The notes beneath the pieces were generated by a model. That model saw only the letters and a list, made by a program, of their open reading frames with translations, did no database searches and was not told the DNA's origin. 64,000 bases of DNA from Mycolicibacterium helvum. GTDB taxonomy: Bacteria > Actinomycetota > Actinomycetes > Mycobacteriales > Mycobacteriaceae. The DNA is taken from contig NZ_AP022596.1 of assembly GCF_010731895.1 (NCBI RefSeq), forward strand, positions 5,456,001 through 5,520,000, in the 5' to 3' direction. Of the stretch, positions 46,598 through 61,207 are shown one piece after another; within the stretch, counting starts at the first letter, position 1; each line of letters begins with the position of its first letter. The translations under genes and the position numbers were made by a program.

Positions 46598-46601
46598 GGG
46601 G

Positions 46602-46742
46602 TCACCACGGAATCTTGGGAAGGAGACCCGCGACGGCGAGGACGACGAAGACGCCCGCGACGATGGTCGCCCACCAATCGATGCCGATCGACAACCGATC
46701 CCGGCGGGTGTCTCCCCTGCCGGGCTCTATGGATTCCGCCAC
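46602..46742 (-). CDS. 46-aa single-helix membrane protein upstream of YeiH
   Basis: GTG start with an excellent RBS (GGGGAGG, spacing 5). The N-terminal 20 residues are charged ([11 protein letters not shown]), followed by one helix (about 22-42, [19 protein letters not shown]) and a KIPW end. Its stop is 4 nt before the exporter ATG. The small size and tight coupling suggest an accessory subunit or a translational leader. No family recognised. Confidence 0.75.
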
Positions 46743-46839
46743 GGTTACCTCCCCGCTCGCGCTACATGTATGTCGCCGATGTTGGCGCTCGGGCGCCGGG
46801 CTGACCAGCAATGCGCTCGCGGTGATTTTCTCCGGGCGG

Positions 46840-47634
46840 CTACTTGGCGGTGGCCGGCGTCGCGGGTAGCGGCGGCGGGCAGGAATCGTGATCCTGCAGC
46901 TCCTCGCCCCCCGCGCCAGACTGGGCGTCGGCCCGGTCGGCCAGCATGACGAAGCCGGGTCGGCCCGCCGGGTCGGTGGCACCGACCACCACCAGCGTGT
47001 GCAATCCCATATCGGCCCGTGCTCCCTGGAGACCGTTGGCGAGCAGGACGAACGGGTTGGCGTCCAGATCGGCACCATTGATCGCCATCGCCCAGTAGGT
47101 GTGGCCGACCAACGGAACCGCAAGCGGTGCCCACGCCGGCCCGATGGCAGCGGCCGCCGACTGCAGCGCGTCGTGGACATCGGCACGCACGCAGTCGATA
47201 TGGATGTGCAGCTGGTTCTGGGTTCGCGCCACCGCCGAGTTGATCGCCAGGCTCATCCAGTCCCGCGCGATCGTTCCGCCGGCTTTCTGTTCGACGAACG
47301 ACCGGGCCTGCCATGCCGCGCCGAAGTAGTTCGTCGCACCGGAGTTCAGCAGTGCCGGGCTTTCGATCCCGGCGATGCGCGCGGTGGGGATCAGCAGATA
47401 CTGCCGATCACCGACCGCATCTTTGAACACCGCATAGCCGTGGTTCTCGCCCCCGCTGAGATCGACACGGGAACACGGTGCCGGGTCGTGCTGCTGGCGC
47501 TCGTCGACGATGCAGCGGTCGTGGACGATCGTCCAGAGTGCGTTCGGGTCAGCGTCGGCGGTGGCCGCGCCCAGCAGACCCAACGCGAGTGCCGCCGCCA
47601 GTGGTGCACTGCAACGCAGGTGTCGCACGGCCAC
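46840..47634 (-). CDS. cdh: CDP-diacylglycerol pyrophosphatase
   Basis: 264 aa with signal peptide about 1-28 (ADA-DP). The Cdh pattern is clear: LWTIVHDRCIVDE, YLLIPTARIAGIESP, and the HIT-like active-site stretch QNQLHIHIDCVR. Cdh cleaves CDP-diacylglycerol to phosphatidate and CMP at the outer side of the membrane. Homologous to M. tuberculosis Rv2289. The C-terminus is Pro-rich. Stands alone on this strand. Confidence 0.88.
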   Translation of the reverse strand: MAVRHLRCSAPLAAALALGLLGAATADADPNALWTIVHDRCIVDERQQHDPAPCSRVDLSGGENHGYAVFKDAVGDRQYLLIPTARIAGIESPALLNSGATNYFGAAWQARSFVEQKAGGTIARDWMSLAINSAVARTQNQLHIHIDCVRADVHDALQSAAAAIGPAWAPLAVPLVGHTYWAMAINGADLDANPFVLLANGLQGARADMGLHTLVVVGATDPAGRPGFVMLADRADAQSGAGGEELQDHDSCPPPLPATPATAK

Positions 47635-47710
47635 ACCCTACGGCGGCAGCGAGAGCACACCACCCCTCACCCGGCGAAGCCGCATCTGCGGATCTAAACC
47701 GAGGTATGGT

Positions 47711-47722
47711 CCGCAGCTGCGG
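47711..47722. promoter_or_regulatory. palindrome upstream of the HTH-TOBE/modA operon
   Basis: CCGCAGCTGCGG is a perfect 12-bp palindrome 23 nt before the GTG. The octamer CTGCGGAT occurs inside it and again at 47686-47693. Candidate binding site for the HTH-TOBE protein. Confidence 0.4.
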
Positions 47723-47733
47723 ATGCAATCGGA

Positions 47734-47739
47734 TACCAT
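47734..47739 (+). promoter_or_regulatory. -10 box, leaderless start of HTH-TOBE gene
   Basis: TACCAT ends 6 nt before the GTG; the palindrome lies in the spacer/-35 region. Confidence 0.5.
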
Positions 47740-47745
47740 TCGGCC

Positions 47746-48150
47746 GTGCCGATGCTGCGGGTTCGGGAGGCCGCCGAGTTGCTCGGCGTCAGTGACGACA
47801 CGATCCGGCGCTGGATCGAGGACGGCAACCTTCCCACGGGCAGTGACCAATCCGGCCGCAAGACCGTCGACGGAGCTGCGCTCGCCGCCTACTCCAGCAA
47901 GAACGCCGCCGCAACTCCGAAAGACCCGTTGTCCGTCGCCAGTTCGGCACGCAATCGGTTCGCCGGCCTGGTTACCCGGGTGGTCGCCGACACCGTGATG
48001 GCTCAGGTCGAGATGCAGTGCGGCCCGTTCACCGTCGTCTCGCTGATGAGTACCGAGGCGGTACGCGAACTGAACCTAGAACCGGGAAGCGTCGCGGTGG
48101 CTGTCGTCAAGGCCACCACCGTCATCGTCGAAACGTCAGGAGAATCGTGA
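47746..48150 (+). CDS. HTH-TOBE molybdate-binding regulator
   Basis: 134 aa starting with GTG. N-terminal excisionase/MerR-type helix (LRVREAAELLGVSDDTIRRWIEDGNLP, 4-30) and C-terminal TOBE/Mop domain (about 65-130: SARNRFAGLVTRVVADTVMAQVEMQCGPFTVVSLMS). Mop domains bind molybdate, so this reads as a molybdate-responsive regulator. Its stop overlaps the modA start by 4 nt (GTGA), so it is made with ModA. Confidence 0.85.
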   Translation: MPMLRVREAAELLGVSDDTIRRWIEDGNLPTGSDQSGRKTVDGAALAAYSSKNAAATPKDPLSVASSARNRFAGLVTRVVADTVMAQVEMQCGPFTVVSLMSTEAVRELNLEPGSVAVAVVKATTVIVETSGES

Positions 48151-48923
48151 TCAAAGGGCTGATGCCGGCAGTGGCCGCCGGTTTGCTCATCGCCGCAAGC
48201 GCCGGCTGTGGTTCCGCGTCGCAACCGTCGTCGTCGACGACGCCGGGCCAGCAGAAGATCATGGTGTTCGCCGCCGCGTCGTTGAAGAAGACCTTCACCG
48301 CGATCGGCGATCAGTTCAGCAAGGACAATCCCGGTGCCTCGGTGGAGTTTTCGTTCGCGGGGTCATCGGATTTGGTGACCCAGCTGACCCAGGGTGCCCA
48401 CGCTGACGTCTTCGCATCCGCCGACACCAAGAACATGGACAAGGCTGCTCAGGCAGGTCTGCTGGCAGGCTCGCCGGTGAACTTCGCGTCCAACACGCTC
48501 ACAATTGCCGTCGCACCCGGGAACCCCAAGGGCATCAACGCGTTTGGCGATCTGACCAAACCGGGCCTCAACGTCGTGGTGTGCGCCCCGCAGGTACCGT
48601 GCGGATCGGCCACCCAGGCCGTGGAGGCCAAGACCGGGGTGAAGCTGACTCCGGTGAGTGAGGAGTCTTCGGTCACCGACGTGCTGAACAAGGTGACCAG
48701 CGGTCAGGCTGACGCTGGCCTGGTCTATGTCACCGACGCCGCAGCCGCCGGTGACAAGGTCAGCGCGGTATCGTTTCCCGAGGCGGCTGGCGCGGTCAAC
48801 ACCTACCCGATCGCTATCCTCAAGCAAGCCGGAAATTCAAGTTTGGCAAGCAAATTCGTTGACCTGGTGACCGGTCCGGCTGGCCAACAGATCCTGACGA
48901 AAGCCGGTTTCGGCAAACCCTGA
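48147..48923 (+). CDS. modA: molybdate-binding lipoprotein ModA
   Basis: 258 aa from GTG coupled to the preceding gene. Lipobox ASAGC (Cys21). ModA pattern: IMVFAAASLKKTFTAIGDQF, VEFSFAGSSDLVTQLTQGAHADVFASAD, NTLTIAVAPGNP, VPCGSATQAVEA, DAGLVYVTDA. It captures molybdate or tungstate for an ABC importer. The permease (modB) and ATPase (modC) that normally follow are missing here; the next gene is a phosphodiesterase. Confidence 0.9.
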   Translation: MIKGLMPAVAAGLLIAASAGCGSASQPSSSTTPGQQKIMVFAAASLKKTFTAIGDQFSKDNPGASVEFSFAGSSDLVTQLTQGAHADVFASADTKNMDKAAQAGLLAGSPVNFASNTLTIAVAPGNPKGINAFGDLTKPGLNVVVCAPQVPCGSATQAVEAKTGVKLTPVSEESSVTDVLNKVTSGQADAGLVYVTDAAAAGDKVSAVSFPEAAGAVNTYPIAILKQAGNSSLASKFVDLVTGPAGQQILTKAGFGKP

Positions 48924-48965
48924 GGCCGGAGCCGGCGACTTTGGTTCTTGTGGCAGGCTCGACGT

Positions 48966-50102
48966 GTGGACCTGCCGCACCCCGACGTTGACACTCCGCA
49001 CCTGGCCGACGTAGTGCCGTCGGTCCTGGCCGCGATGGGGGTTGCCGGCTTCGAGCCGCGCATCGGCTTGCCCGAGCCCGCGGCCGGGGCCTGCGTCCTC
49101 CTGATCGACGGTCTGGGTGCCGAACTTCTCGACGCTCACGCCGAGGACGCCCCGGTTCTGGCCGGCTTGCGCGGCCGCACCCTGCACGTGGGTTTCCCCT
49201 CCACCACCGCGGCCGGGCTCGCCGCGGTCGGTACCGGCCGCCCGTCGGGTGGTCACGGCATGGTCGGCTACTCGTTTCGGCTGCCCGACGCCGGGGTCAT
49301 CAACGCGCTGCGCTGGCGCCCTCATCCCTGGGGCGACGATCTGCGGGAGTCGGCGGTACCCGAGCAGGTGCAGCCGCTACCCACCACCTTCGAGCGGGCC
49401 GCGTCGGCGGGCATCGCTGTCAGCGTCGTCTCGGGTGCGGAGTTCACCGGCTCGGGACTCACCCGGGCGGTGCTGCGCGGTGGGCGCTACGTCGGCGTGC
49501 ATGGCCTCGGCGACCTGGCTGCTGCGGTCCGCGCGACGGTGGCCGATGGTGGCTTCTGCTACGGCTACCACGCCGACCTCGATCTCATGGGCCATCTCTA
49601 TGGCCCGGGCTCGGCGGCCTGGCGGTTGCAGTTACGGCACGTGGACCGGCTGGTGGAGTCTGTCGTCGACGGCCTGCCGCCCGGCGGCCTGCTCGCGATC
49701 GTGGCCGACCACGGCATGGTGGCCGTCGATACTGTCGGAATCGTCGACATTGACTCCGCTACAACACTTCTCGACGGTACCGCCGCTATCGGTGGTGAGC
49801 CCCGCGCCCGCCACGTTTATGTTCGCGACGGTGCGGCCGCTGACGTTCTGGCGGTATGGCGGGAGTCACTGGCCGACCATGCCTGGGTGGCGTCGCGCGA
49901 TGAAGCGATCGCCGCCGGCTGGTTCGGCGCCACCGTCGACGACCGGGTACGGCCGCGCATCGGTGACGTGGTGGCCGCCGCCAAAGGTCAAGCCGTGCTG
50001 GTGCGACGCACGATCGAGCCGATGGAGTCGGCGCTGATCGGCCACCACGGGTCGCTGACGAGCGCCGAGCAACGGGTGCCGCTCCTGCTGGCCTACGGCT
50101 GA
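48966..50102 (+). CDS. nucleotide pyrophosphatase/phosphodiesterase (alkaline phosphatase superfamily)
   Basis: 378 aa from GTG. Metal and nucleophile motifs of the NPP group: CVLLIDGLGAELL (first metal Asp), GFPSTTAAGLAAVGTG (nucleophile Thr or Ser), GYHADLDLMGHLYG (His/Asp ligands), AIVADHGMVAVD. It has no signal peptide, so it is probably cytosolic. Substrates may be nucleotide sugars or phosphodiesters. It follows modA by 42 nt and probably has its own start. Confidence 0.82.
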   Translation: MDLPHPDVDTPHLADVVPSVLAAMGVAGFEPRIGLPEPAAGACVLLIDGLGAELLDAHAEDAPVLAGLRGRTLHVGFPSTTAAGLAAVGTGRPSGGHGMVGYSFRLPDAGVINALRWRPHPWGDDLRESAVPEQVQPLPTTFERAASAGIAVSVVSGAEFTGSGLTRAVLRGGRYVGVHGLGDLAAAVRATVADGGFCYGYHADLDLMGHLYGPGSAAWRLQLRHVDRLVESVVDGLPPGGLLAIVADHGMVAVDTVGIVDIDSATTLLDGTAAIGGEPRARHVYVRDGAAADVLAVWRESLADHAWVASRDEAIAAGWFGATVDDRVRPRIGDVVAAAKGQAVLVRRTIEPMESALIGHHGSLTSAEQRVPLLLAYG

Positions 50103-50204
50103 GCCGTGTCCTGCGCGGTCAGCAGGTCGGCGGCGGGGTTGCGGTGGCCGGGAGCGTCGGACTCGCGAAGCTGGGCCGTGTGCCGATACATGTCCATGTC
50201 GAGC

Positions 50205-50210
50205 TACGGT
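50205..50210 (+). promoter_or_regulatory. -10 box, leaderless start of yaaA
   Basis: TACGGT ends 7 nt before the GTG. Confidence 0.5.
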
Positions 50211-50217
50211 CTGGGTC

Positions 50218-50964
50218 GTGATCGTTCTGCTTCCGCCGTCGGAGACCAAACGCAGTGGCGGCGACGGCCCCCCGCTGCGGTTCGGTGAACTGGGCAGCTC
50301 CGCTCTTGACCCGCTGCGCCGAGAACTTGTCGACGAGCTCGTCGCGCTGGCCGCCGAGCCCGACGTGTGCCGTCGTGCGCTGGGTATCTCCCCCGCCCAG
50401 GATGCCGAGATCGAACGCAATGCCGCGCTGCTGAGCTCACCGACGCTGCCGGCGATCGACCGCTATACCGGGGTTCTCTACGACGCCCTGGACGTGGCGT
50501 CGCTGCGGGGTGCTGCTGCGGCCCGCGCCCGTGCTCGGCTCGCCGTCGGCTCCGCCCTGTTCGGGCTGCTTCGAGCCGACGACCGGATTCCGGCCTACCG
50601 GCTGTCGGCCTCGTCCAAACTCCCCGGGAGCGCGACTCTGGCGTCCCGGTGGCGGCCCGTCCTGGAGCCCGTCTTGGCCGAATTGGCCGCCACCGAGCTG
50701 GTGATCGATCTGCGCTCGGGTTCCTACGCCGGGTTGGGCAAGCTGCCGAATGCGGTGCGCGTCGACGTCCTGGCTGAGCATCCCGATGGCCGCCGCACCG
50801 TCGTCACGCACTTCAACAAGGCGCACAAAGGACGACTCGCCCGGGTGCTCGCGTCGAGCCGGTCCGAACCCGGCGATGCAGCTGCCGTCGCCACCGTGGC
50901 CCGCCGGGCCGGCATGCAGGTCGAACGAAGCGGCAACGAGCTGACCATCGTCGTCGCGGCGTGA
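50218..50964 (+). CDS. yaaA: peroxide stress protein YaaA/DUF328 family
   Basis: 248 aa starting with GTG. Patterns MIVLLPPSETKRSGG at the N-terminus, YTGVLYDALD, LLRADDRIPAYRLSASSKLPG and THFNKAHKGRLAR match YaaA. In E. coli YaaA lowers free iron during peroxide stress and has DNA-binding ability. The stop overlaps the following methyltransferase start by 4 nt (GTGA). Confidence 0.88.
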   Translation: MIVLLPPSETKRSGGDGPPLRFGELGSSALDPLRRELVDELVALAAEPDVCRRALGISPAQDAEIERNAALLSSPTLPAIDRYTGVLYDALDVASLRGAAAARARARLAVGSALFGLLRADDRIPAYRLSASSKLPGSATLASRWRPVLEPVLAELAATELVIDLRSGSYAGLGKLPNAVRVDVLAEHPDGRRTVVTHFNKAHKGRLARVLASSRSEPGDAAAVATVARRAGMQVERSGNELTIVVAA

Positions 50965-51584
50965 CCAGTGTCAGGATGATGGGCGTGAGCACCCGCTGGC
51001 AGAAGTCGACGGCACCACGCGGCGACGAGTACGACGCCCGGTGGAAATCGCTGGCCGACGCCGGCCAGAACATTCACGGCGAGGCCGATCTGATCGAAAG
51101 CTTGTTGCGTGAATCCGGTGGCACATCGGTGCTCGATGCTGGCTGCGGCACTGGCCGGGTAGCCATCGAATTAGCCAACCGCGGCGTGTCCGTGGCCGGC
51201 GTCGACTCCGACGCCGGGATGCTGGCCGCAGCGCGACGCAAAGCGCCGCAGCTGCGCTGGATCGAGGCTGATCTGGCCGACCTGGCAGCGGCGAACGTCG
51301 ACCGCGTCAACCTCGTAGTCCTGGCCGGCAACGTGATGATCTTTCTGGAACCAGGCACCGAGGCGCGGGTGCTCGCCGCGCTGGCGGGACGGCTGACACC
51401 GGGTGGACTGTTGGTCGCCGGGTTCTCGGTGCTCCCTGACCGCCTGTCACTACAGCGATATGACCAGGCCGCCGAAGCGGCCGGCCTGGTCCCGGTGGTG
51501 CGCTGGGCGGCGTGGGACCGCACCCCGTTCGAGGGCGGCGACTACGCCGTGTCGGTGCACCGGTTGCGTCGTTCGCCACGCTGA
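50961..51584 (+). CDS. class I SAM-dependent methyltransferase
   Basis: 207 aa from GTG coupled to yaaA; an inner GTG at codon 9 is an alternative. Motif I SVLDAGCGTGRVAIELANRG, acidic loop GVDSDAGML, then [12 protein letters not shown]. Compact Methyltransf_25-like fold. Substrate unknown; the coupling to yaaA suggests a shared stress context, which is inference. Confidence 0.82.
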   Translation: MTSVRMMGVSTRWQKSTAPRGDEYDARWKSLADAGQNIHGEADLIESLLRESGGTSVLDAGCGTGRVAIELANRGVSVAGVDSDAGMLAAARRKAPQLRWIEADLADLAAANVDRVNLVVLAGNVMIFLEPGTEARVLAALAGRLTPGGLLVAGFSVLPDRLSLQRYDQAAEAAGLVPVVRWAAWDRTPFEGGDYAVSVHRLRRSPR

Positions 51585-51734
51585 ATAAACTGCCGCCGAC
51601 GGAAACGCGGGTAAAACGGGGGGTGGCCAGTGCAGACAGCGTTCGCTAGGCTCTGTATCCGGCGCCGGTAGGTTGACTGCGACATCGTTGCTGGCGAGTC
51701 TGCTCTATCGGTGCGATCAGGGAGGGATGGCTTG

Positions 51735-52859
51735 ATGCGATCGGCGTTCTCGGGCCGTCCTGCGAACCAGTACTACACCCTCACAGCGTTGCTGGCCGCC
51801 CGCGGTGCGCAGACCTTCACCTCCCGGGTGATCGCGGGGTGTGTCTTCACCCTTGGCCTGATCGCATTGGGGACGCTTGGCAGCTCGGCCACTTTTCAGT
51901 GGGCGATTGGCCGAGACCTGCTGATCGCGGTGGTCGTCATCTGCTTCGTCTCGACGTTCATCTGGCTGCGCCACCGCTGGCCAACCAGGACGGAGTCAGC
52001 GTTGCTGGTCGCGATCGCGGCGGTGGCCATTCCGATCGGGAGCATCAGTCCGGCGATCCCGATGTACGGCTTGCTCGGCTCGTCGTCGTTCGTGTTGATC
52101 ATTGGCTACACGGCCCTGTTTCACGGCCCGCGCCTGCTGGCCTCGGTCCTGGCCGTCGCGGTCGCCACGCTCGCCTACCTTGGTTTCCGGATGGTCCATG
52201 CGGACCTTCCCTTCGCCCTGGCCGGCGTCGCGTTGATGCTCCTGCTCTACGTATTCGCCGCATTCTCCTGCCGACTAGTGGTGTGGTTGAGTGGCACCGA
52301 GGACGGCGCCGACGCCGTCGAACCGCTCACCGGGTTGCTCAACCGGGACGCGTTCTATCTGCAGACCGCGACGCTGCTGGCCTCCCGCAATCGCGACGAC
52401 GATCGCTACCTGGTGATCAGCGTCGTCAATATCGACAGCTTTGCGGCCATGGTCTCGGTCGCAGGTAGCCGGGGTGGCAACCGGGCGCGGGTCGCCGCCG
52501 GGCAGGCGTTGCGTGAAACAGTGCGCCGGGATGCCATCGTGGGCCACGTGGGCGAGGCCGAGTTCTTCGTCGCCGACTGTTTCACCACTCCCGACTCGTC
52601 ACCGTTGATCGAGCGCATCCGCGGTGCGATCGCGGCAACACCGGCCGGGATGACAGCGAGCATCGGGGTGGTCAGCACCCCGCTGCGTCCGTTGGTCGAG
52701 CACCCGCCCCACGAGATCCTCGACGAGATCGTCGCGCTGGCCACCACCGCGATGTACGAGGCGCGCAGGGCCGGCGGTAACCAGGCCCGCTATGTGGTGC
52801 GGCCGAACCTGAGCATCTCTGAGGACGGGACCGAGGGGTACGACACCCCACTGTTGTGA
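51735..52859 (+). CDS. membrane protein with degenerate GGDEF domain
   Basis: 374 aa from ATG after GGGAGGGA. Six or so membrane helices (about 35-185) precede a GGDEF-like domain (about 195-355: EPLTGLLNRDAF, VVNIDSFAAMV, MTASIGVV). The signature is HVGEAEFFV: Gly-Glu-Ala-Glu-Phe at 273-277 in place of GGDEF. With the second Gly and the Asp lost, c-di-GMP synthesis is doubtful; it may bind nucleotide or act as a sensor. Convergent with the SnoaL-like gene, 4 nt apart. Confidence 0.8.
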   Translation: MRSAFSGRPANQYYTLTALLAARGAQTFTSRVIAGCVFTLGLIALGTLGSSATFQWAIGRDLLIAVVVICFVSTFIWLRHRWPTRTESALLVAIAAVAIPIGSISPAIPMYGLLGSSSFVLIIGYTALFHGPRLLASVLAVAVATLAYLGFRMVHADLPFALAGVALMLLLYVFAAFSCRLVVWLSGTEDGADAVEPLTGLLNRDAFYLQTATLLASRNRDDDRYLVISVVNIDSFAAMVSVAGSRGGNRARVAAGQALRETVRRDAIVGHVGEAEFFVADCFTTPDSSPLIERIRGAIAATPAGMTASIGVVSTPLRPLVEHPPHEILDEIVALATTAMYEARRAGGNQARYVVRPNLSISEDGTEGYDTPLL

Positions 52860-52863
52860 ATCC

Positions 52864-53262
52864 TCAGCGCGTAGCCCCGTGGAGATCGGTAGGCGCGGCA
52901 GGCGATTCGGGATCGATTTCCACCCCGTAGGACGTGATGGACGTTATCTCGCGGCCGGCGAATTGGCAGATGTGGCAACTGGAGACGATGGTGAGGCCGT
53001 CCGGGCGCTGGTACCGGCCGAGTACCTCTACGACGACGGTGTCGTCCTGCTCGACGGTCAGGCACCGGTCCCAGGTCGCAACGGTTCCGGCCAGGCCGCC
53101 CGCGGTCTCCCGGCAGGTGGCGGCGACCGCGTCGGCGCCCTCGAGCACCGAGAAGCCGACAATCGTCCACGCAACGTCACGGGCCAGGTGCGGGAGGGCC
53201 TCGCCGAATCGGTGCTGGGCGAAGGCGCGCGCGATCTCCGCTCGGTCGCCAACCTCGGTCAT
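52864..53262 (-). CDS. SnoaL-like / NTF2-fold protein
   Basis: 132 aa. Cone-shaped NTF2 fold pattern: IARAFAQHRFGEALPHLARDVAWTIVG, CLTVEQDDTVVVEVLGRYQRPDG and ITSITSYGVEID. The family includes polyketide cyclases, dehydratases and carotenoid-binding domains; no active-site signature is decisive. Divergent from the agmatinase gene (93 nt between starts). Confidence 0.72.
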   Translation of the reverse strand: MTEVGDRAEIARAFAQHRFGEALPHLARDVAWTIVGFSVLEGADAVAATCRETAGGLAGTVATWDRCLTVEQDDTVVVEVLGRYQRPDGLTIVSSCHICQFAGREITSITSYGVEIDPESPAAPTDLHGATR

Positions 53263-53342
53263 GTCCGCTCCTGTCCTGCACCCTGCCGTCGAGGCTAGCG
53301 GCAAGCACGCGAAGCTGGCCCGCGCCGGCCCGACGGCAGCGG

Positions 53343-53348
53343 TAATGT
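53343..53348 (+). promoter_or_regulatory. -10 box, leaderless start of agmatinase-family gene
   Basis: TAATGT ends 7 nt before the ATG. Confidence 0.5.
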
Positions 53349-53355
53349 CTGCCCA

Positions 53356-54402
53356 ATGAGCCCCGGCCACGACCACAAACCCGAGCGTGAACTTCCACCC
53401 GGTATGGCCGAGCAGCTGGATCTGCCGTATTCGGGAATGGTCTCGTTCGGGCAGCGCCCCTTCCTGACCGAGCCCGAGCAGCTGGATAGCTGGAAGCCGG
53501 ATGTGGCGATCGTCGGGGCACCATTCGACATCGCCACCACCAATCGGCCCGGCGCAAGGTTCGGCCCGCGGGCGATCCGGTCCACCGCCTACGAACCCGG
53601 CACCTATCACATGGATCTCGGGCTGGAGATCTTCGACTGGCTGGAGGTCGTCGACTTCGGCGACGCACACTGCCCGCACGGCTCCACCGAGGTGTCGCAT
53701 GCGAACATCCGCGAGCGGGTGCACACCATCGCCTCGCGCGGCATCGTCCCGGTCGTCCTCGGCGGCGACCACTCGATCACCTGGCCGTCGGCCACCGCTG
53801 TCGCCGATGTGCACGGCTACGGCAATGTCGGGATCGTGCATTTCGACGCGCACGCCGACACCGCCGACATCATCGACGGCAACCTGGCCAGCCATGGCAC
53901 CCCGATGCGCCGGTTGATCGAGTCCGGCGCCGTGCCGGGAACGCACTTCGTCCAGGTCGGGCTGCGCGGCTACTGGCCGCCGCAGGACACCTTCGAGTGG
54001 ATGCAAGAACAAGGCATGGTCTGGCACACCATGCAGGAGATCTGGGATCACGGCTTCAAATCCGTGATGGCCAAGGCCGTGAGCGAAGCCCTCGCCAAGG
54101 CCGACAAGCTTTATGTCTCAGTCGATATCGACGTCCTCGACCCGGCCCACGCACCCGGCACCGGCACCCCCGAGCCGGGCGGAATCACCAGCGCCGACCT
54201 GCTACGCATGGTCCGGCAGCTGTGCTACGAGCACGATGTGGCCGGCGTCGACGTGGTGGAGGTCGCGCCGGCTTACGACCACGCCGAGCTCACGGTCAAC
54301 GCCGCACACCGGGTGGTGTTCGAGGCACTCGCCGGGATGGCCGCCCGTCGCCGCGATGCGGCGAAGGTCAAGCCGGGCCCGCCGTCCCCGTTGGCCACCT
54401 AA
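53356..54402 (+). CDS. speB: agmatinase/ureohydrolase family enzyme
   Basis: 348 aa. The binuclear Mn site of the arginase/agmatinase fold is complete: GGDHS (136-140), DAHAD (164-168) and SVDIDVLDP (255-263). An N-terminal extension of about 30 residues and a basic C-terminus frame the core. Agmatinase releases urea from agmatine to give putrescine, but several relatives act on other guanidino compounds. No polyamine genes are adjacent, so substrate is open. Confidence 0.85.
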   Translation: MSPGHDHKPERELPPGMAEQLDLPYSGMVSFGQRPFLTEPEQLDSWKPDVAIVGAPFDIATTNRPGARFGPRAIRSTAYEPGTYHMDLGLEIFDWLEVVDFGDAHCPHGSTEVSHANIRERVHTIASRGIVPVVLGGDHSITWPSATAVADVHGYGNVGIVHFDAHADTADIIDGNLASHGTPMRRLIESGAVPGTHFVQVGLRGYWPPQDTFEWMQEQGMVWHTMQEIWDHGFKSVMAKAVSEALAKADKLYVSVDIDVLDPAHAPGTGTPEPGGITSADLLRMVRQLCYEHDVAGVDVVEVAPAYDHAELTVNAAHRVVFEALAGMAARRRDAAKVKPGPPSPLAT

Positions 54403-54408
54403 AGGAAC

Positions 54409-55539
54409 TCAGTAGTCGGACTCGGCGGCCAGGATCTCGGCCAGATAGGCGTCGGGTCCCGGCTCGGCCAGCCGGTTGCGGGCGAATCTCCGGACCCGCG
54501 CACGGGATTGGGCGGGTTCGGCCGTCTCGGCCCCGACAGTGACAACGGTAGCCGACCAGTTCTGGTCCCACGCCTGGGTGACGGTAGCCGGCCGGCCCGC
54601 CGCATCGATAAGTTCGAGGCTCGCCCGCCCCGATTCATCGAGCGCGCCAGCAGCGGTAAAAGCATTGCAGCGCAGTCTGATCGGGATACCGGCGGGCGAC
54701 CCGGGACCCACCACCGCGACCTGCAACACGGCGTTGACCCGATCACCGTCGGCCGTCACCGCCCAGCCGACGGTGTCCTCGGCGGCGTCGAACACGCCGC
54801 CGGGCACCGCAGACCAGGCCATCGACGTGACACCCCTGGCGATCAACCCGGCCGGCGTAGGTCCGGTATCGGTGCCGGCCGCCAGCGCGTAGTCGTCGTG
54901 GTGCGCGGATACCAGCGCCGGCGACGCTGTCATCTGCTCGACCGTGTCGGCCAGGTCGGCCCAGCCCGGGGCGTCGACGCCGACGTCCTGGGCCAGCTCC
55001 ACACACCGGACCACCAACTCCACCACCCGCGGCTCACCGACAATCAAATGCAGGGTCAGCGCAGCGGCGTGCGGGGCCAGCAACGCGCCGATATCGGCGT
55101 CGAGGCTGTCCTCCCCCATGAAGTCCTCGGCTTGCGCGGTGAGCAGCGCGATTTCGGCGTCGAGCAGGGCCGGGTCCAGGCCGATGATGCCGTCTTGAAC
55201 GCTGACCGGCCACCACCGACGCAGCCAGTGCCCGATGGCCAGCCGGCGCAGCCCGTCCAGTGTTCCTGAGCGCACTTCGACACTCGGAAGATCCACTCCC
55301 CTATCGACGTCCGGTGGCTGCGCCGCCGCAGCGGCTACGGCTCGGTGTCCGTCCTCGCCGAGTACGCGCCACAACCAGTCGGCTCGGTCGGCATCGGTCA
55401 GCGTGATCTGGGCCTGCTTCTCGGCCTCGTCCACGGTCCATGCCAGCACCGCGCCGTCGACCTCCACGACCGCCACCAACGGCACGGCGGCAACGGCGGG
55501 GCCGGTGCGCCACAGTCCGGATTCGGCGACCAATCTCAT
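54409..55539 (-). CDS. uncharacterised protein of the CHAT gene cluster (a)
   Basis: 376 aa; ATG overlaps the stop of the upstream gene by 4 nt. No signal peptide or membrane helix. Rich in Ala/Val with acidic character. Its first half has a Trp-rich patch (HWLRRWWPVSV, about 104-114) and the second half looks like beta-rich modules (GVTSMAWSAVPGGVFDAAEDTVGW). I recognise no family. Codon usage and GC look like the neighbours. It is the last gene of the pair and presumably works with it. Confidence 0.7.
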   Translation of the reverse strand: MRLVAESGLWRTGPAVAAVPLVAVVEVDGAVLAWTVDEAEKQAQITLTDADRADWLWRVLGEDGHRAVAAAAAQPPDVDRGVDLPSVEVRSGTLDGLRRLAIGHWLRRWWPVSVQDGIIGLDPALLDAEIALLTAQAEDFMGEDSLDADIGALLAPHAAALTLHLIVGEPRVVELVVRCVELAQDVGVDAPGWADLADTVEQMTASPALVSAHHDDYALAAGTDTGPTPAGLIARGVTSMAWSAVPGGVFDAAEDTVGWAVTADGDRVNAVLQVAVVGPGSPAGIPIRLRCNAFTAAGALDESGRASLELIDAAGRPATVTQAWDQNWSATVVTVGAETAEPAQSRARVRRFARNRLAEPGPDAYLAEILAAESDY

Positions 55540-56855
55540 TGCTTCACCTGGACTTCCAGCATGGACTTGATCCGCTGCCGGTGATCGAGGCTCACTGAAC
55601 GGGCGACCCCCTCGAGCAACGCGCGCAGATCGTCGACGTCCTCGCAGGGTTCCTGCCACACATCGCGCCCGTGCAGCCGCGCCCACAGCCGACCCAGGTA
55701 CGGCCGGGCAAAACTGGCCAGATCGTCGACGACTTGGCGCTGACGCGGATGAAGCGGCGCGACATCGGCCATGGCGCGGCGCGCATGCAGGACATAGGCC
55801 TCTTTGCGCAACCTGGCCTGAATCGTCGCGGCCAGCTGATACCGGCTGCTGGCTCGCTCATCGAGCGGAGTCAGCTGGCCGGCCACCTCGATCCCGGCCA
55901 CTAGCGCGGCCTGCTTGTCCTCGCCGAGGAAACCCCAAGGGGCGCAGGCACGGTCGACTTCTTCGGCGCACAGTAGTGGCACATCGGGAAGCTCGTCACG
56001 ATCCAGTGCGCGCCGCAGCGTCGCCCGGACGCGGTCCACCACGCTGCGGTCCAGCGGCCGGTCGCGATCCGATCCCCCGGACAACGGTGGCGGGCGCAGC
56101 GGCAATGCCGACGTCAGGCCGAGCTCCAGGATCGACCATGGCAGTGCCGATGGTTGGGTGCGCGCCTGGGCGCCCAGATTGTGCGGGGTCGCGTCGGCGA
56201 TCAGCGCCGACCACACCCGTTGACGCGCAACGGTGGCGCGATGTCCCTCGGCCGGACCCAGAACGGTGGTCAGACCGGCCAGGAACGGTCCGCTGATGCT
56301 GCCGTCGGCACGCACATCGGCCCAACTCCGCTGCAATTGGGCCGAGAGCCGGGAAAGCACCTGCGGCGACGTGACGAGCTCGTTGAGCACCTCGACGCCG
56401 GTGCGGTCACGGTCATCGTGCACGGCGCGTAGCGCCCCCGATGCCCTCTGCACACCATCGTCACCGGGTGCACCGTTGGTCACCGCGAGCTCGAAACAGA
56501 CTGGGAAATAGAGGTCCTGGGCGTTACCGGCGGTGACGCGCAGCCGGCGACGTTCGGCCTTCATCAACTCGAACCATGCCGCGGCCGAGCGCAATCGCTC
56601 GGCGTGATCTGCGATCAGGTCAGCCATCTGGGTGGCCACGTCGGCGTCAACGAACGCGGCGGAAAACGCGGGGTTGCTGCGCAGCCGCAAGACGAGGGGG
56701 TCGAGGATCCGCTTCACCGTTCGGCGTAGCGGCCCGCCATCGTCGCCGCTGAGGATCTCCACACCGGGTCCGATCGCCCGCCACGCACGGTCGATCACCG
56801 CGCGCCGCGGCTGCGACGTGCTGACGGCGGTGACCGTGGTCGAGCCGGCGCTCAT
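55536..56855 (-). CDS. uncharacterised protein of the CHAT gene cluster (b)
   Basis: 439 aa from ATG; the frame is open 270 codons upstream, but that part is antisense to the divergent gene. Predicted mostly helical, soluble, with repeated charged segments such as ADHAERLRSAAAWFELMKAERRRL and ATIQARLRKEAYVLHARRAMADV. No known domain. Translationally coupled to the 376-aa protein. Confidence 0.7.
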   Translation of the reverse strand: MSAGSTTVTAVSTSQPRRAVIDRAWRAIGPGVEILSGDDGGPLRRTVKRILDPLVLRLRSNPAFSAAFVDADVATQMADLIADHAERLRSAAAWFELMKAERRRLRVTAGNAQDLYFPVCFELAVTNGAPGDDGVQRASGALRAVHDDRDRTGVEVLNELVTSPQVLSRLSAQLQRSWADVRADGSISGPFLAGLTTVLGPAEGHRATVARQRVWSALIADATPHNLGAQARTQPSALPWSILELGLTSALPLRPPPLSGGSDRDRPLDRSVVDRVRATLRRALDRDELPDVPLLCAEEVDRACAPWGFLGEDKQAALVAGIEVAGQLTPLDERASSRYQLAATIQARLRKEAYVLHARRAMADVAPLHPRQRQVVDDLASFARPYLGRLWARLHGRDVWQEPCEDVDDLRALLEGVARSVSLDHRQRIKSMLEVQVKQ

Positions 56856-56921
56856 CCGGACAGGATAGAGGCAGCGCGAAGTTGGGTTCGGTAGCCGGTG
56901 CCCGCAGCCACGCTGCTCCCC

Positions 56922-57581
56922 ATGTCTGATGCACTGCTGGGCGCCATCGCCGTCGTCTCCGCCATCGCACTCGCGTCGATCATCGTCGCGGCCGGCCTGG
57001 CCGGCCAGCCACCGAGGGCGCCCCGCTCCCGCCGAACGCGCTGCGTGCGGGCGGTCGGCGTCGGGACGGTCCAGATGGTGGCCGAGGCCGATGACCCTGT
57101 CATCGTCATTGAGGTGGAAAGCGTTGCCGGCCATCGTTTCACCGGACGGCTGTGCCACGGCCATGGCGATCCGGTGGTGTCGGCCTTGCGTCCCGGGGTG
57201 ATCGTGCTGGTGTCCTTCGACCCGGCCAGCCGCAAGGAGCTCTCGCTGGCCGACGACGCCATCGCAGTGCGGGCCGCGGTCGACAACACGCTGCTGCGCC
57301 AGGGCGTACTCACCGGCGATCAGCTGGACGTGATCCGGTTCGGCACCCGCTCGTGCGGTGTCGTGACCGGGATGCGACCCACCGGCCGTGAGCGCGCCGA
57401 CTGCCGCGAGGTCGAACTGGACCTCATGGTCACCCGCCCGGGCGGCGGCCAGTTCCCGGCCCGCGAAACCACGCTCGTGCCCGAAGCCGCGCTGGCCAAA
57501 GTCTCCCCCGGCAGCATCATCGACGCCTACTACCTGCCGGAGGACGAGTCCGCGATCGCCGTCTGCCTGCCCCCGGCGTGA
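56922..57581 (+). CDS. N-terminally anchored protein inside the CHAT cluster
   Basis: 219 aa from ATG (a GTG eight codons upstream is possible). One N-terminal helix (about 5-28) followed by a basic stretch (PPRAPRSRRTR) and a beta-rich domain (about 40-215) with VGTVQMVAEADDPVIVIEVESVAGHRFTGRL, VIVLVSFDPASRKELSLADD and ELDLMVTRPGGGQFPARETTLV. No family recognised. It points opposite to the four cluster genes and lies between the two pairs; its 3' end is 5 nt from the convergent CHAT stop. Confidence 0.65.
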   Translation: MSDALLGAIAVVSAIALASIIVAAGLAGQPPRAPRSRRTRCVRAVGVGTVQMVAEADDPVIVIEVESVAGHRFTGRLCHGHGDPVVSALRPGVIVLVSFDPASRKELSLADDAIAVRAAVDNTLLRQGVLTGDQLDVIRFGTRSCGVVTGMRPTGRERADCREVELDLMVTRPGGGQFPARETTLVPEAALAKVSPGSIIDAYYLPEDESAIAVCLPPA

Positions 57582-57586
57582 CAAGT

Positions 57587-58927
57587 TCACCTCGCACCCC
57601 CGACCGCGAAGGTGACCACCGCGGCCCAGTACAACGGGCTGGCGCCCACGTTGCCGGCGCGCCACCGGCGCATCTGCTCCCGCTGCCAGCGGTTCAGGCT
57701 CAGCACCGCGTCATCGGCCTCATGCGCGTCGTCGACGGCAATGACGACCTGGGCCATCGGATCCTCAGTGCGGGCGGTGAACCGCCGGTATCCGGCGGTT
57801 GTGGGCAGTGACCACAGCGTTGCGGTCACCAGTTCGCTGCCGCAGAGCACCATTGCAGCGACCAGGCCGGTCGCCTCGTCGAACTGATAGTCGCCGCCTG
57901 AGCCGCACGCGAGTAGCGCCACCCGGGGCGGCAATGGCAGCTGTACGGCCATCAAGTCCGCGGCCAACAGCGGGCGGTGATCGCCGACGGGTTCGGCGGC
58001 ACCCTCCGCGGCGGACGTGCAGGCCAGATGCAGAGCTGCGCGGTCGGCGTAGCCGTGCGTACGGTCGGCGGCGCTGGCATGGCCGACGAACAGCAACCTG
58101 CTGGGGGCACGTTCCAGGACTGCGGCGAGCCAGCTCCGGTCGGCGTCGCTGCGGCGGAACAACTCCACTGCGGCGCCGACCGCGGGCAGCACCGTGCGGC
58201 GTGTGAGGAGCTCGCCGAAATGCAGGGACAGCGTGCTCTCACCCGACGGTCGCCCTAGGACTGACCCCAGCGGTGAATCAGGTCGCTGGCCCGGCACGCG
58301 GGGGTCCATCACCAGAAGTGCTGGGGCGCTTTTCCTTTCACGCCAGCACGCGGGTATACGCGACGCGTGGACGATGTTGGGAGGCACCGCCATCACCACG
58401 TCGACCATCTCCATGAGACGCAAACCCTCGGTGACGCTGGCGATGTCGACGAGCTGCCATGGAATGTGCGCGGCGTTGGTCCCGGTGAAGGTGATCGCCG
58501 ATTTCCGGGCGGCAAGCAGCTCCTCGGGGTTGGGGCCGGCCAGCGGGACCGCCAGCAGGCCCCACGGGATACGCGCCAGCCGCGCACTCGGGGAGATGAA
58601 CAGCACCGGCCGCGGATCGGCGACGTGTTCGGAGATCAGCTGCCAGGCAGGTGCGGGAATCAGCAGCACACCCAGGATGTAAGCGAGGGTCAATTCACCC
58701 TGCGCGGTGGCGAATGGTCCGCGGGTCAGGGCCCGGTCGAGAGCGTCTGTGAGGCTTTCGTCGCCGTCGGGGTCGGGCAGCGCCCCCCGCAGCTCCTCGA
58801 GCGCGGCCAGCAGGATCGGCTCGTGCACCACCCAGGTGATCGTGCGATCGGGCTGCCCGACCACACGCAGACTGGCGTATGTGGCGACGCCGAGATCGGC
58901 GAACCGCAACACGAGTTCGGTGTTCAT
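57587..58927 (-). CDS. CHAT-domain (caspase-like) protein
   Basis: 446 aa. C-terminal CHAT domain (about 170-445) with catalytic His283 in SRLLFVGHASAAD and Cys341 in RVALLACGSGGDYQ, followed by FDEATGLVAAMVLCGSELVTATLW. This is the clan-CD Cys-His dyad of separase/caspase-like peptidases. The first 150 residues form another, unknown domain. Its ATG overlaps the stop of the TPR-like gene by 4 nt. Cytosolic. Related CHAT proteins act in conflict and signalling systems; here the target is unknown. Confidence 0.85.
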   Translation of the reverse strand: MNTELVLRFADLGVATYASLRVVGQPDRTITWVVHEPILLAALEELRGALPDPDGDESLTDALDRALTRGPFATAQGELTLAYILGVLLIPAPAWQLISEHVADPRPVLFISPSARLARIPWGLLAVPLAGPNPEELLAARKSAITFTGTNAAHIPWQLVDIASVTEGLRLMEMVDVVMAVPPNIVHASRIPACWRERKSAPALLVMDPRVPGQRPDSPLGSVLGRPSGESTLSLHFGELLTRRTVLPAVGAAVELFRRSDADRSWLAAVLERAPSRLLFVGHASAADRTHGYADRAALHLACTSAAEGAAEPVGDHRPLLAADLMAVQLPLPPRVALLACGSGGDYQFDEATGLVAAMVLCGSELVTATLWSLPTTAGYRRFTARTEDPMAQVVIAVDDAHEADDAVLSLNRWQREQMRRWRAGNVGASPLYWAAVVTFAVGGAR

Positions 58928-60612
58928 GGCCACGTCGACCACACGGGGCCGCCGGAGGTGACGGCTTGGCCGTAGCGGCTCTGCGCCAGAATTCGGTAGC
59001 GCGCCAGGATAGGTGCGCTGTCGGGGTCCATCTGCAGGGCAGGTAGTGGCCCCAATGTCGTCAGAGTCAGCGCATCGACCGAGAGGCCACTGGCGGCCAG
59101 CGCCTCCTCGTCCACGGTTTCGACGGGAACCGTCACCGTCGCCGGGGCGTCCCACCCGCCGGCTTCGCCGCGTGGCTCGCTCGCGAACGTGCCACGCGCA
59201 CAATGGTATTCGATGAGTTCGCTCAGTAGCGCGTCGTTCTCCCATTCCCAGGCCACCGAGAAGGCGCCGGCGAGCATGCGTGCCGAGACCTGGGAGGCCC
59301 ATCGCCAGCGCGCGTCAGCATCGGTCATGGCGTATCGCACGGAGTCGACGGCCAGGGCGGCGGGGATCTTGAGCTCGGCGGCCTTCTCTAGCTTCTTGCG
59401 CGCGCTGCGGTGGCGCTCGCTTCCGGGGTCGAATCGCGTGACGCCGAGGGAGTCCACTTGGCGTTCCTGGATCTGCTGCCAGCTGTCCGACGGATCGCCG
59501 ATACCGTCGAAGTTCAGGTCGGCCAGGGCGTCGGCGCGCCAGATCGAGCCGAGGTGGTCGTCAAGGCGGGCATATTGCAACCAACTCGATCGCGGCCAGC
59601 TGTCCAGAAACGCGCGGGCCTCGGCGACCTGTTCGACCGCCTCTGCGAACCGGCCGCGGAATACCGAGATCCAGCTGCGCTGCATCAAGATGCGGTGGAT
59701 GTACAGCGGACGGCCCAATTCGCGCCATTGCGTTTCGGCGTGCCCCCAGGATTCGTCGGCCTCCGCCAGCCAGCCGACGCCCAGCCGGGTGAGCCCGAAG
59801 TACAACCAGCACCGAGCGACGTCGTTGGCCCGTGAGTGCTCGGCGATCACCGGATAGGCGGACCCGACCAGTCGTTCGGTGGACTCGTGGTCACCCCGCA
59901 TCCAGGTGGCTGCGGCGGTCTCGAGTTCGGCTCGCGCCCAATACAGTCCCCACCCCCGGCGTTGAGCCCGGGCGCCCGCCCGGTGCAGCCACAGTTCGCC
60001 TTCGGCCAGCCGACCGGTCTCGACGCAGAACCGGCCGTACGCGATGCCGGCCGCGACCAGCAGCTGGTCGGCTTCATCGGTGCCGTCGGGCAGCCCGTCG
60101 ATGATCGCAATGATGTTCTGCCACAGCTCCGCCGCCGGTACATGCAGGTCGTCATCGCACAGCGCCGTCGCGCACAGGACGCCCGCCAGGGTCGACAAGT
60201 GACGGTGTTCGGGTTCTAAGTCGGTGAATCGGTGTGCGGCGTCGTCCTCACGCAACCCGGCCAGTTCGGATGCGGCTTCTTCGTGATCACCGGCGGACGC
60301 GGCAAGGCCGGTGCGCAGGAAGCGGGCCCGCAGGGTGTAGCGGGCGACCATGTGGTCGACCTCGACGGCGTCGCGGGCATCGGCGTACTGCGCCAGGCAA
60401 TCGGTCATCCGTCGCAGGCACTCACGGGTACCGTCGTATGCCGTTCTGGTGAGATAGATTTCGCCGAGCTGGGCGAAAGCCTCGAGTGCCAAATCGTCGC
60501 GGTCCTCGCGTTCGATCTCCGGCATGAGCGACAGCAGGAGCTCCTTGGCCGCCTCCTCCTTGGCTGCGAGCGCGAGCTGGCGAGCCCGCTGTAGCTCACC
60601 GGTAATGGACAC
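58924..60612 (-). CDS. TPR-like helical-repeat protein coupled to the CHAT protein
   Basis: 562 aa from GTG; longer in-frame starts run into the intergenic region. Nearly all helical, with TPR-like units such as LALEAFAQLGEIYLTRTAYDG, AGIAYGRFCVETGRLAEGEL, CWLYFGLTRLGVGWLAEADE and MQRSWISVFRGRFAEAVEQV. TPR domains often bind peptides or partner proteins. Four-nt overlap with the CHAT gene indicates the two are made in fixed ratio. Likely sensor or adaptor of the CHAT protein. Confidence 0.78.
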   Translation of the reverse strand: MSITGELQRARQLALAAKEEAAKELLLSLMPEIEREDRDDLALEAFAQLGEIYLTRTAYDGTRECLRRMTDCLAQYADARDAVEVDHMVARYTLRARFLRTGLAASAGDHEEAASELAGLREDDAAHRFTDLEPEHRHLSTLAGVLCATALCDDDLHVPAAELWQNIIAIIDGLPDGTDEADQLLVAAGIAYGRFCVETGRLAEGELWLHRAGARAQRRGWGLYWARAELETAAATWMRGDHESTERLVGSAYPVIAEHSRANDVARCWLYFGLTRLGVGWLAEADESWGHAETQWRELGRPLYIHRILMQRSWISVFRGRFAEAVEQVAEARAFLDSWPRSSWLQYARLDDHLGSIWRADALADLNFDGIGDPSDSWQQIQERQVDSLGVTRFDPGSERHRSARKKLEKAAELKIPAALAVDSVRYAMTDADARWRWASQVSARMLAGAFSVAWEWENDALLSELIEYHCARGTFASEPRGEAGGWDAPATVTVPVETVDEEALAASGLSVDALTLTTLGPLPALQMDPDSAPILARYRILAQSRYGQAVTSGGPVWSTWP

Positions 60613-60712: not shown

Positions 60713-61207
60713 TCACTTGCAGGTGACGGAGATTTCGAACTTCTTGCTGATCATGCCCGCCATGGGGTTCTTCATGTCGGCGCCGGCCGCCTCCCCGGTG
60801 ATCGTGTAGGTATTGCCGTCCACCTTCACCTCAGCAGAACCGGTCTTCATGCCCATGTTGTCGCTCACCGCGAGTGCGTTGCCATCGACGACCATCCCCA
60901 GCGACTGGACCTTCGGCGGCTGACCGTCGGTCATGACCACACCGAGACCCTGCTGACCACCCACGGCCCCGCTGGCGATATTGATGGTGCTGCCCTGCTT
61001 CACGCACGTCACGGTGTTCAGGTCCAGGCCCTGCAGGTCGTTTCCCTCGACCTTCACCGATGTCTTCCCGCCGGAGGCGACCGCGGCGCTGGTGGGTGCC
61101 GAACCCGTCGCCGAGCTGGTGCCCTTGCTGCTGTTGTTGTCGGAGCACGCCATCAGCAGCATGCTGCAGCCGATAACGCCGACACCGACCGCGAGAATTC
61201 GCTTCAC
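60713..61207 (-). CDS. lpqH: LpqH (19-kDa antigen) family lipoprotein
   Basis: 164 aa. Lipobox LLMAC (Cys21) and a Ser/Thr/Gly-rich linker, then the LpqH domain with TVTCVKQGSTINIASG, GVVMTDGQPPKVQSLG, YTITGEAAGADMKNPM and FEISVTCK. LpqH-family lipoproteins are surface-exposed TLR2 ligands of mycobacteria. The protein shares the paired Cys residues of the family. It may be a paralogue of the 19-kDa protein. Its own terminator follows. Confidence 0.85.
   Translation of the reverse strand: MKRILAVGVGVIGCSMLLMACSDNNSSKGTSSATGSAPTSAAVASGGKTSVKVEGNDLQGLDLNTVTCVKQGSTINIASGAVGGQQGLGVVMTDGQPPKVQSLGMVVDGNALAVSDNMGMKTGSAEVKVDGNTYTITGEAAGADMKNPMAGMISKKFEISVTCK

What the first reader, a model, noticed from the sequence alone, without database searches (positions are those of the whole stretch)
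54409..60612. Candidate undescribed CHAT-protease gene system
A TPR-like protein and a CHAT (caspase-like) protein with an apparent His283/Cys341 dyad overlap by 4 nt, and two uncharacterised cytosolic proteins overlap by 4 nt on the same strand downstream. A small anchored protein runs antiparallel between the pairs. TPR-CHAT pairs elsewhere serve as sensor and protease in defence or cell-death systems, but I recognise no known effector, gRAMP, MoxR or vWA partner here. The four same-strand genes may form one regulated proteolysis unit in mycobacteria.
Basis: partly seen in the sequence, partly recalled or inferred. Interest (0 to 1): 0.75.

Follow-up and report, generated by a model that had tools for sequence, protein, structure and literature searches.

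The report
Six-gene TPR-CHAT protease cassette
Many mycobacteria and some related soil bacteria carry an apparently undescribed set of genes built around a caspase-like protease, and one partner protein hides, in its middle, the ending of the tag that bacteria use to mark proteins for destruction, which suggests a protease-triggered switch.

Summary
In detail: a TPR-like and a CHAT gene (PF12770; dyad His283/Cys341) overlap by 4 nt, as do two downstream genes of no known family (G3, G4). They form one unit: in 148 Mycobacterium genomes CHAT matches 95 and G3 99, and all 95 CHAT genomes have G3. The conserved set also includes the antiparallel anchored protein and an upstream 19-kDa-type lipoprotein. 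It keeps its order in 70 of the 80 named loci fetched (the best 80 of 353), is re-ordered in Nocardia, occupies three alternative chromosomal sites, and its G3-G4-TPR-CHAT core lies on Streptomyces plasmids, once with TPR and CHAT fused. New here: G4 carries a near-invariant YALAAG, usually DYALAAG, in the least confidently modelled linker; DYALAA ends this genome's own tmRNA (ssrA) tag. I propose that TPR-CHAT cuts G4 at LAA|G, exposing an ssrA-like degron, so that ClpXP removes the acidic G4 half and frees basic G3. The unit is shown by comparative genomics; cleavage, degradation and G3's action are inferred. It resembles Craspase/Csx30 and RseA logic, but no gRAMP-sized gene, CRISPR-like repeat or defence model was found.

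The parts
60713..61207 (-). LPQ: LpqH-type (Myco_19_kDa) lipoprotein, upstream of TPR
   Evidence: PF05481 112.5 bits, cut-off 23; found in 16 of 17 G3 loci (the 17th, L029, is near a contig end); lipobox-like motif in 87 of 88
58924..60612 (-). TPR: TPR-like protein, 562 aa, GTG start
   Evidence: conserved with CHAT; fused to CHAT in one Streptomyces plasmid homologue
57587..58927 (-). CHAT: caspase-like protease, 446 aa
   Evidence: PF12770 42.9 bits; 4-nt overlap with TPR
58079..58081 (-). codon of His283, putative catalytic
   Evidence: invariant in 17 of 17 homologues
57905..57907 (-). codon of Cys341, putative catalytic
   Evidence: invariant in 17 of 17 homologues
56898..57581 (+). SM: small membrane-anchored protein, 227 aa (ATG at 56922)
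   Evidence: found in 14 of 17 G3 loci (counting L030's two pieces once); hydrophobic N-terminal stretch
55536..56855 (-). G3: all-helical basic protein of no known family, 439 aa
   Evidence: no Pfam, NCBIfam, PADLOC or PHROG match; AlphaFold2 best model pLDDT 83.1, pTM 0.64, the five models ranging down to 54.6; pI 8.8
54409..55539 (-). G4: acidic protein, helical part + low-confidence linker + Ig-like part, 376 aa
54874..54894 (-). codons 216-222 of G4, DYALAAG: internal ssrA-like motif (proposed cleavage after Ala221)
   Evidence: Y217-G222 weighted conservation 0.98-1.0, D216 0.81; 204-210 at 0.10-0.23 and 223-225 at 0.19-0.30; inside the pLDDT<50 stretch 207-228; tmRNA tag of this genome ADSNQRDYALAA

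Best explanation
The genes encode one protease-triggered switch. TPR and CHAT form a sensor-protease pair (conservation, overlap and a natural fusion: shown by sequence; physical complex: inferred). Acidic G4 holds basic G3 in check (inferred from charge, gene overlap and co-conservation). On a signal, possibly from the envelope through the lipoprotein and the anchored SM protein (weakly inferred), CHAT cuts G4 in its flexible linker between Ala221 and Gly222. This leaves ...DDYALAA as a new C-terminus, whose last six residues are those that end the cell's tmRNA tag, so ClpXP (or ClpC1P) degrades the N-terminal half of G4 and frees G3, which acts as the output. The motif and its match to the tmRNA tag are shown; cleavage, degradation and release are inferred.
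For: Unit: 95 both, 4 G3-only, 0 CHAT-only, 49 neither in 148 genomes (Fisher p 6.5e-35, not corrected for kinship); six genes in one order in 70 of 80 named loci; three alternative sites, tree fitting two relocations; TPR-CHAT fusion. Switch: YALA[AG] in 117 of 120 listed G4 homologues and [YF]ALA[AG] in 88 of 96 G4 in held loci; of the 8 others 5 are YALVAG, 1 YSLAAG, 1 masked, 1 lost. The lost one (L109) is the one held G3-G4 locus with upstream sequence but no CHAT there (a kinase gene lies there), and G535, whose G3 coordinates equal L109's, gave no CHAT match. [DE]YALAA occurs 70 times in 1466 predicted proteins of 81 loci, all in G4. tmRNA tags end [DE]YALAA in 12 of 12 family genomes and YALAA in the one outside. 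Mycobacterial ClpX and ClpC1 degrade proteins tagged ...RDYALAA (PMC4416901, passages); the mycobacterial anti-sigma factor RsdA has an ssrA-like internal VAA degron (PMC8165232, passage). TPR-CHAT Csx29 cuts Csx30 in a flexible loop, with no single residue essential there, and Csx30 inhibits CASP-sigma (PMC10028731, passages): protease specificity alone would then hardly keep six residues fixed.
Against: No cleavage has been measured, and nothing seen establishes an A|G specificity for CHAT (Csx30 is cut between residues 427 and 429). YALAA without a preceding D or E also occurs 26 times outside called G4 proteins in the same 81 loci, all in one protein cluster, which I read as G3 from its sequence context: so the pentamer can arise without this role. 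Tag and motif do not covary strictly: Nocardia G082 has a tag ending EYALAA but G4 VDYALAAG. The motif was noticed after the fact. The sibling sets in Rhodococcus show no such motif in the two proteins searched, nor do the related proteins of L043-L045. No co-fold was possible. G3 has no recognisable activity. Low pLDDT may partly reflect a shallow alignment.
Confidence: 0.38

Rival explanations
1. TPR-CHAT is a protease and G3/G4 form an effector complex, but the YALAAG segment is a docking peptide (for CHAT, TPR or G3), not a cryptic degron; its likeness to the tmRNA tag is coincidence.
For: An invariant hexapeptide in a flexible linker is equally typical of a binding motif; Gly222, outside the tag match, is just as conserved; tag and motif do not covary strictly; YALAA also turns up in another protein of the set.
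Against: The sequence equals the tag's last six residues, [DE]YALAA is absent from the other predicted proteins of the same 81 loci, and most departures are YALVAG, which would leave LVA, a degradation-tag variant recalled to be recognised by ClpX.
Confidence: 0.32
2. An abortive anti-phage or plasmid-conflict system: TPR senses a phage or mobile element, CHAT fires, G3 or a G4 fragment kills or arrests the cell.
For: TPR-CHAT in type III-E CRISPR belongs to a defence complex (abstracts in the listing); the core occurs on Streptomyces plasmids and sibling sets on Rhodococcus plasmids; the set was not found in a third of the Mycobacterium genomes and is fragmentary in some.
Against: No PADLOC match for the five proteins, no relatives of G3 in viral contigs, the flanking proteins scanned look like housekeeping, and each of three chromosomal sites recurs in 17 to 34 loci.
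Confidence: 0.25
3. A housekeeping envelope-stress pathway (RseA-like): the lipoprotein and SM pass an envelope signal to TPR-CHAT.
For: Lipoprotein and anchored protein are conserved in both gene arrangements; recurrent chromosomal sites.
Against: Not found in about a third of the Mycobacterium genomes; the lipoprotein profile did not match beside the two Streptomyces cores read and the SM profile only weakly (13.8 bits, one protein), though a DUF3592 membrane gene is there.
Confidence: 0.25
4. CHAT is proteolytically inactive and scaffolds a TPR/G3/G4 complex.
For: No activity has been shown.
Against: His283 and Cys341 are invariant in 17 of 17 and 94 of 95.
Confidence: 0.08

Closest known systems
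Type III-E CRISPR Craspase (Cas7-11/gRAMP + TPR-CHAT Csx29, Csx30, CASP-sigma)
   Same: TPR plus CHAT protease next to partner genes; Csx30 is cut in a flexible loop and inhibits a partner (PMC10028731, passages); one Streptomyces homologue here is a single TPR-CHAT chain
   Different: No gene large enough for gRAMP among the calls at 44-64 kb and no CRISPR-like repeat array there; G3 and G4 match no family; G4 has an ssrA-like motif
Cleavage-exposed ClpXP degrons (RseA, RsgI; mycobacterial RsdA; RsiW and LexA recalled)
   Same: A regulator bears a hidden degron revealed by an upstream cut, then ClpXP finishes it (RseA: PMC10202637, passages; RsgI: PMC12203970, abstract; RsdA: PMC8165232, passage)
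   Different: RseA and RsgI are cut by membrane proteases; here a soluble CHAT is proposed, and the hidden motif matches the host tmRNA tag over six residues
vWA-MoxR and related NTP-dependent conflict systems with caspase-like proteases
   Same: Multi-gene systems with a caspase-superfamily protease (PMC7159879, passages)
   Different: No NTPase, vWA or MoxR hit in the set or among the flanking proteins scanned
Toxin-antitoxin systems controlled by Clp proteases
   Same: Proposed acidic inhibitor (G4) and basic partner (G3), overlapping genes
   Different: Larger proteins, no family match, an extra dedicated protease; toxicity untested

Membership tests
CHAT (caspase-like) peptidase family | PF12770 above the curated cut-off | tested here: met
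   42.9 bits against 24
CHAT (caspase-like) peptidase family | conserved His/Cys dyad | tested here: met
   H283, C341 in 17 of 17; 94 of 95
CHAT (caspase-like) peptidase family | proteolytic activity | not testable with these tools
   needs an assay
Type III-E CRISPR Craspase | gRAMP/Cas7-11 gene nearby | tested here: not met
   no predicted protein over 709 aa at 44-64 kb; Pfam scan of nine flanking proteins finds other families
Type III-E CRISPR Craspase | CRISPR array nearby | tested here: not met
   at 44-64 kb only one two-copy 20-nt direct repeat, inside G3
Type III-E CRISPR Craspase | TPR and CHAT in one chain | tested here: not met
   separate genes in the window; fused in Streptomyces L152
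Known anti-phage defence systems (PADLOC) | match to a defence model | tested here: not met
   0 models for five proteins at E up to 1
vWA-MoxR ternary systems | MoxR NTPase and vWA partner | tested here: not met
   no such Pfam hit in the five proteins or the nine flanking window proteins scanned
Cleavage-exposed ssrA-like degron substrates | xAA motif in a flexible internal position | tested here: met
   YALAA|G at 217-222 in the pLDDT<50 linker
Cleavage-exposed ssrA-like degron substrates | cut at the motif and ClpXP degradation | not testable with these tools
   needs biochemistry
TPR proteins | TPR Pfam hit in the window protein | tested here: not met
   0 families at E up to 1; homologues hit TPR models
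Known fold of G3/G4 | clear match to a solved structure | tested here: inconclusive

The most novel reading that the evidence does not exclude
A self-contained protease relay in which a dedicated TPR-CHAT protease converts an internal, evolutionarily fixed copy of the end of the host tmRNA tag in G4 into a live C-terminal degron, using ClpXP to release an effector of a new family (G3).
Probability: 0.36. Interest if true: 0.87.

Novelty: new variant of a known kind. Interest (0 to 1): 0.73.

Why it matters
If true, it shows a CHAT protease working in a non-CRISPR, actinobacterial switch with two new protein families, and a protein that has fixed the end of its host's tmRNA tag as a latent degron. 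It gives a testable cleavage site, a substrate and a readout for an enzyme class with few known natural substrates (recalled), and G3 is found in 99 of the 148 Mycobacterium genomes sampled.

Tried and rejected

Rejected: that the Rhodococcus two-hypothetical sets are proven G3/G4 homologues. Profile comparison is not significant (E 0.076 for the G4 pair, 0.17 for the G3 pair); only the last gene of L045 resembles G4 (hhalign E 3e-5, probability 73%, one sequence). They are called siblings by architecture. That SM is DUF3592: weak (18.3 bits in a Nocardia homologue, below cut-off; hhalign to two Streptomyces DUF3592 proteins E 0.097). Literature: no held paper has both 'chat domain' and 'mycobacterium' or the four terms; 28 hold 'chat domain' (listing seen). 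This searches open-licence PMC text only.

Limits and rows: the named loci are the best 80 of 353 confirmed and lie close to the query. The phylum searches scored 4 candidates per genome in the rows shown, so rare distant copies can be missed. One search merged same-family hits within 900 bases. Of the 10 of 80 named loci without the exact pattern 7 are cut by a contig end, L093 has the set plus a stray antisense hit, L082 lacks an SM hit, L109 lacks SM, CHAT and TPR. The tree used 91 of 97 loci with G3; the smallest clade holding site B has support 0.74, site C 1.0, site A 0.0.
Full report
What is there. On the minus strand lie TPR (58924-60612), CHAT (57587-58927), G3 (55536-56855) and G4 (54409-55539); the two pairs each overlap by four bases. 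A small anchored protein, SM (56898-57581), lies between the pairs on the plus strand. Upstream of TPR lies a lipoprotein gene of the Myco_19_kDa family, here LPQ (60713-61207, 112.5 bits). CHAT alone has a Pfam family among the five proteins of the finding; NCBIfam and PADLOC give nothing useful.

Conservation. In a sample of 151 genomes of the family, CHAT matches 34, TPR 30, G3 29 and G4 29; the 29 G3 genomes are the same as the 29 G4 genomes and all are among the CHAT genomes. In 148 genomes of the genus G3 matches 99 (E<=0.001) and CHAT 95 (E<=1e-10). All 95 CHAT genomes are in the G3 list. The four G3-only genomes are G535 (84% complete), G626 and G651 (fragments) and G627 (E 7.8e-4). 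So 95 have both, 4 G3 only, none CHAT only, 49 neither; Fisher p 6.5e-35, which ignores kinship. In a phylum sample of 396, G3 was found only inside the family (11 genomes) and CHAT in 12, one of them outside the family; these two searches scored few candidates per genome.

Arrangement. Profiles of the six genes were run over 101 loci: the window, 20 unnamed family loci and 80 named loci titled Mycobacterium, Mycolicibacterium or Mycobacteriaceae, the best 80 of 353. The order LPQ, TPR, CHAT, SM (opposite), G3, G4 occurs in 78, including 70 of the 80 named ones. Of the other 10 named loci seven are cut by contig ends, L093 has the full set plus a stray hit, L082 lacks an SM hit, and L109 has G3 and G4 but a kinase gene where CHAT and SM would be. 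In nine loci of Nocardia and two unnamed genera the order is SM and LPQ (opposite), G3, G4, TPR, CHAT: six complete, two without an SM hit, one cut by a contig end. A Nocardia farcinica record from the plasmid collection also holds all six. The same members in two arrangements is strong evidence for a unit. Four family loci with CHAT and TPR but no G3 or G4 by these profiles also exist (L035, L043-L045).

Movement. The flanks of the window and the 80 named loci fall into three exclusive sites: A 34, B 29, C 17 (the window is C), one undetermined. On a tree of the four core proteins, sites B and C each form one clade apart from unlabelled relatives, and A is not a clade (supports 0.74, 1.0 and 0.0). 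The simplest reading is two relocations of the set as a whole; separate gains are not excluded.

Plasmids and the fusion. By tblastn, nine of 72,556 plasmid records carry CHAT relatives and six carry G3; all six also carry CHAT. They are five Streptomyces records and the N. farcinica replicon. Two of the Streptomyces records were read: gene order G3, G4, TPR, CHAT (L152, L153). In L152 TPR and CHAT form one 978-residue chain (TPR 26-547, CHAT 560-977). A DUF3592 membrane gene lies beside both (30.1 and 25.2 bits, cut-off 25.3). The other three records are Rhodococcus plasmids with CHAT, TPR genes and two hypothetical genes upstream of CHAT; these are not significantly related to G3 or G4 by profile comparison.

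Structure. The G4 model (79 sequences, best pLDDT 82.3, pTM 0.80) has a helical part, a stretch at 207-228 below pLDDT 50, an Ig-like part and C-terminal helices. The G3 model (69 sequences, best pLDDT 83.1, pTM 0.64; the five models range from 83.1 down to 54.6) is all helical. No fold match is convincing. G3 is basic (pI 8.8), G4 acidic (pI 4.4), TPR acidic (pI 4.9). CHAT's His283 and Cys341 are invariant in 17 homologues.

The hidden tag. The least confident stretch of G4 contains some of its most conserved residues: Y217-G222 have weighted conservation 0.98-1.0 over 95 sequences, D216 0.81, while positions 204-210 lie at 0.10-0.23 and 223-225 at 0.19-0.30. Residues 216-221 read DYALAA. The tmRNA of this genome encodes ADSNQRDYALAA; of the 12 family genomes examined 10 tags end RDYALAA and 2 REYALAA, and the tag of the one genome outside the family ends SYALAA. 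YALA[AG] is in 117 of 120 listed G4 homologues, and both Streptomyces G4 read have YALAAG. In the held loci 88 of 96 G4 have [YF]ALA[AG]; the other eight are five YALVAG, one YSLAAG, one masked and one DYGPVAG. From recall, not from a call, LVA is a working variant of the ssrA end. The DYGPVAG case is L109, the locus without CHAT, and G535, whose G3 coordinates equal L109's, gave no CHAT match: a single case, but in the direction the model predicts.

Controls on the motif. Among 1466 predicted proteins of 81 loci [DE]YALAA occurs 70 times, all in G4. The shorter YALAA occurs 97 times: 71 in called G4 proteins and 26 outside, all 26 in one protein cluster, mostly as SRYALAAQI; by its context this is a variable stretch of G3, where the window itself has another sequence. 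So the pentamer can arise without a degron role, though it was seen in no other cluster. These proteins are related, so the counts overstate independence. Also against strict mimicry, Nocardia G082 has a tag ending EYALAA and a G4 with VDYALAAG, and the G4-like proteins of the sibling sets that were searched lack the motif.

Mechanism. ClpX needs a free C-terminus for ssrA-type tags (recalled), so an internal copy is silent until a cut just after LAA. Mycobacterial ClpX and ClpC1 degrade proteins ending RDYALAA (PMC4416901, passages; for ClpX also PMC6889138, passages). Precedents for cut-exposed degrons are RseA (passages), RsgI (abstract) and, in mycobacteria, RsdA (passage). A TPR-CHAT protease cutting a regulator in a flexible loop is shown for Csx29-Csx30, where no single loop residue was essential; the authors themselves compare it with RseA and ClpXP (PMC10028731, passages). 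Put together: signal, TPR-CHAT, cut of G4 at LAA|G, ClpXP removal of the acidic half, release of G3. Shown here: unit, dyad, motif, match to the tag, fusion. Inferred: signal, complex, cut, degradation, G3 output.

Comparison and verdict. It works like Craspase-Csx30 combined with an RseA-type degron, but is not shown to be a member of either: no gRAMP-sized gene, no CRISPR-like repeats at 44-64 kb, no defence model match, no MoxR or vWA partner in the proteins scanned. No held paper pairs 'chat domain' with 'mycobacterium'. The finding is real, broader than proposed, and gives a sharp testable prediction.

Noticed in passing
L154, L155, L156 (Rhodococcus plasmids): Sibling sets of CHAT + TPR + two hypothetical genes, each with an annotated NYN-domain gene within about 6 kb of CHAT; possibly a related plasmid-borne system.
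   Followed up: partly
L045:8637-14965 (unnamed genus g31): CHAT, TPR and two further same-strand genes; the last resembles G4 by profile comparison (E 3e-5, one sequence) but lacks the YALAA motif.
   Followed up: partly
L109:155-2098: A protein kinase gene stands upstream of G3-G4 where SM and CHAT normally lie, and G4 there has lost the YALAAG motif.
   Followed up: partly
G572, G558, G544, G568, G626, G651: G3 occurs as pieces or fragments in several Mycobacterium genomes (some on separate contigs), suggesting repeated decay of the cassette or assembly breaks.
   Followed up: no
G3 of 25-26 held loci, e.g. L041 and L040: YALAA also occurs in a variable stretch of G3 in part of Mycobacterium; not conserved and not in the window's G3.
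   Followed up: partly
G4 residues 360-376 (window 54412-54462): The extreme C-terminus (consensus PDAFLAEILAAESDY) is also strongly conserved and could be a binding tail.
   Followed up: no
L148: A truncated CHAT relative in a same-class genome outside the family, without a G3 match in that genome.
   Followed up: no
window 45479-54402: Nine flanking proteins scanned look like housekeeping or regulation: CDP-diacylglycerol pyrophosphatase, MerR/TOBE regulator, solute-binding protein, phosphodiesterase, YaaA, methyltransferase, GGDEF, arginase family and a conserved hypothetical.
   Followed up: yes
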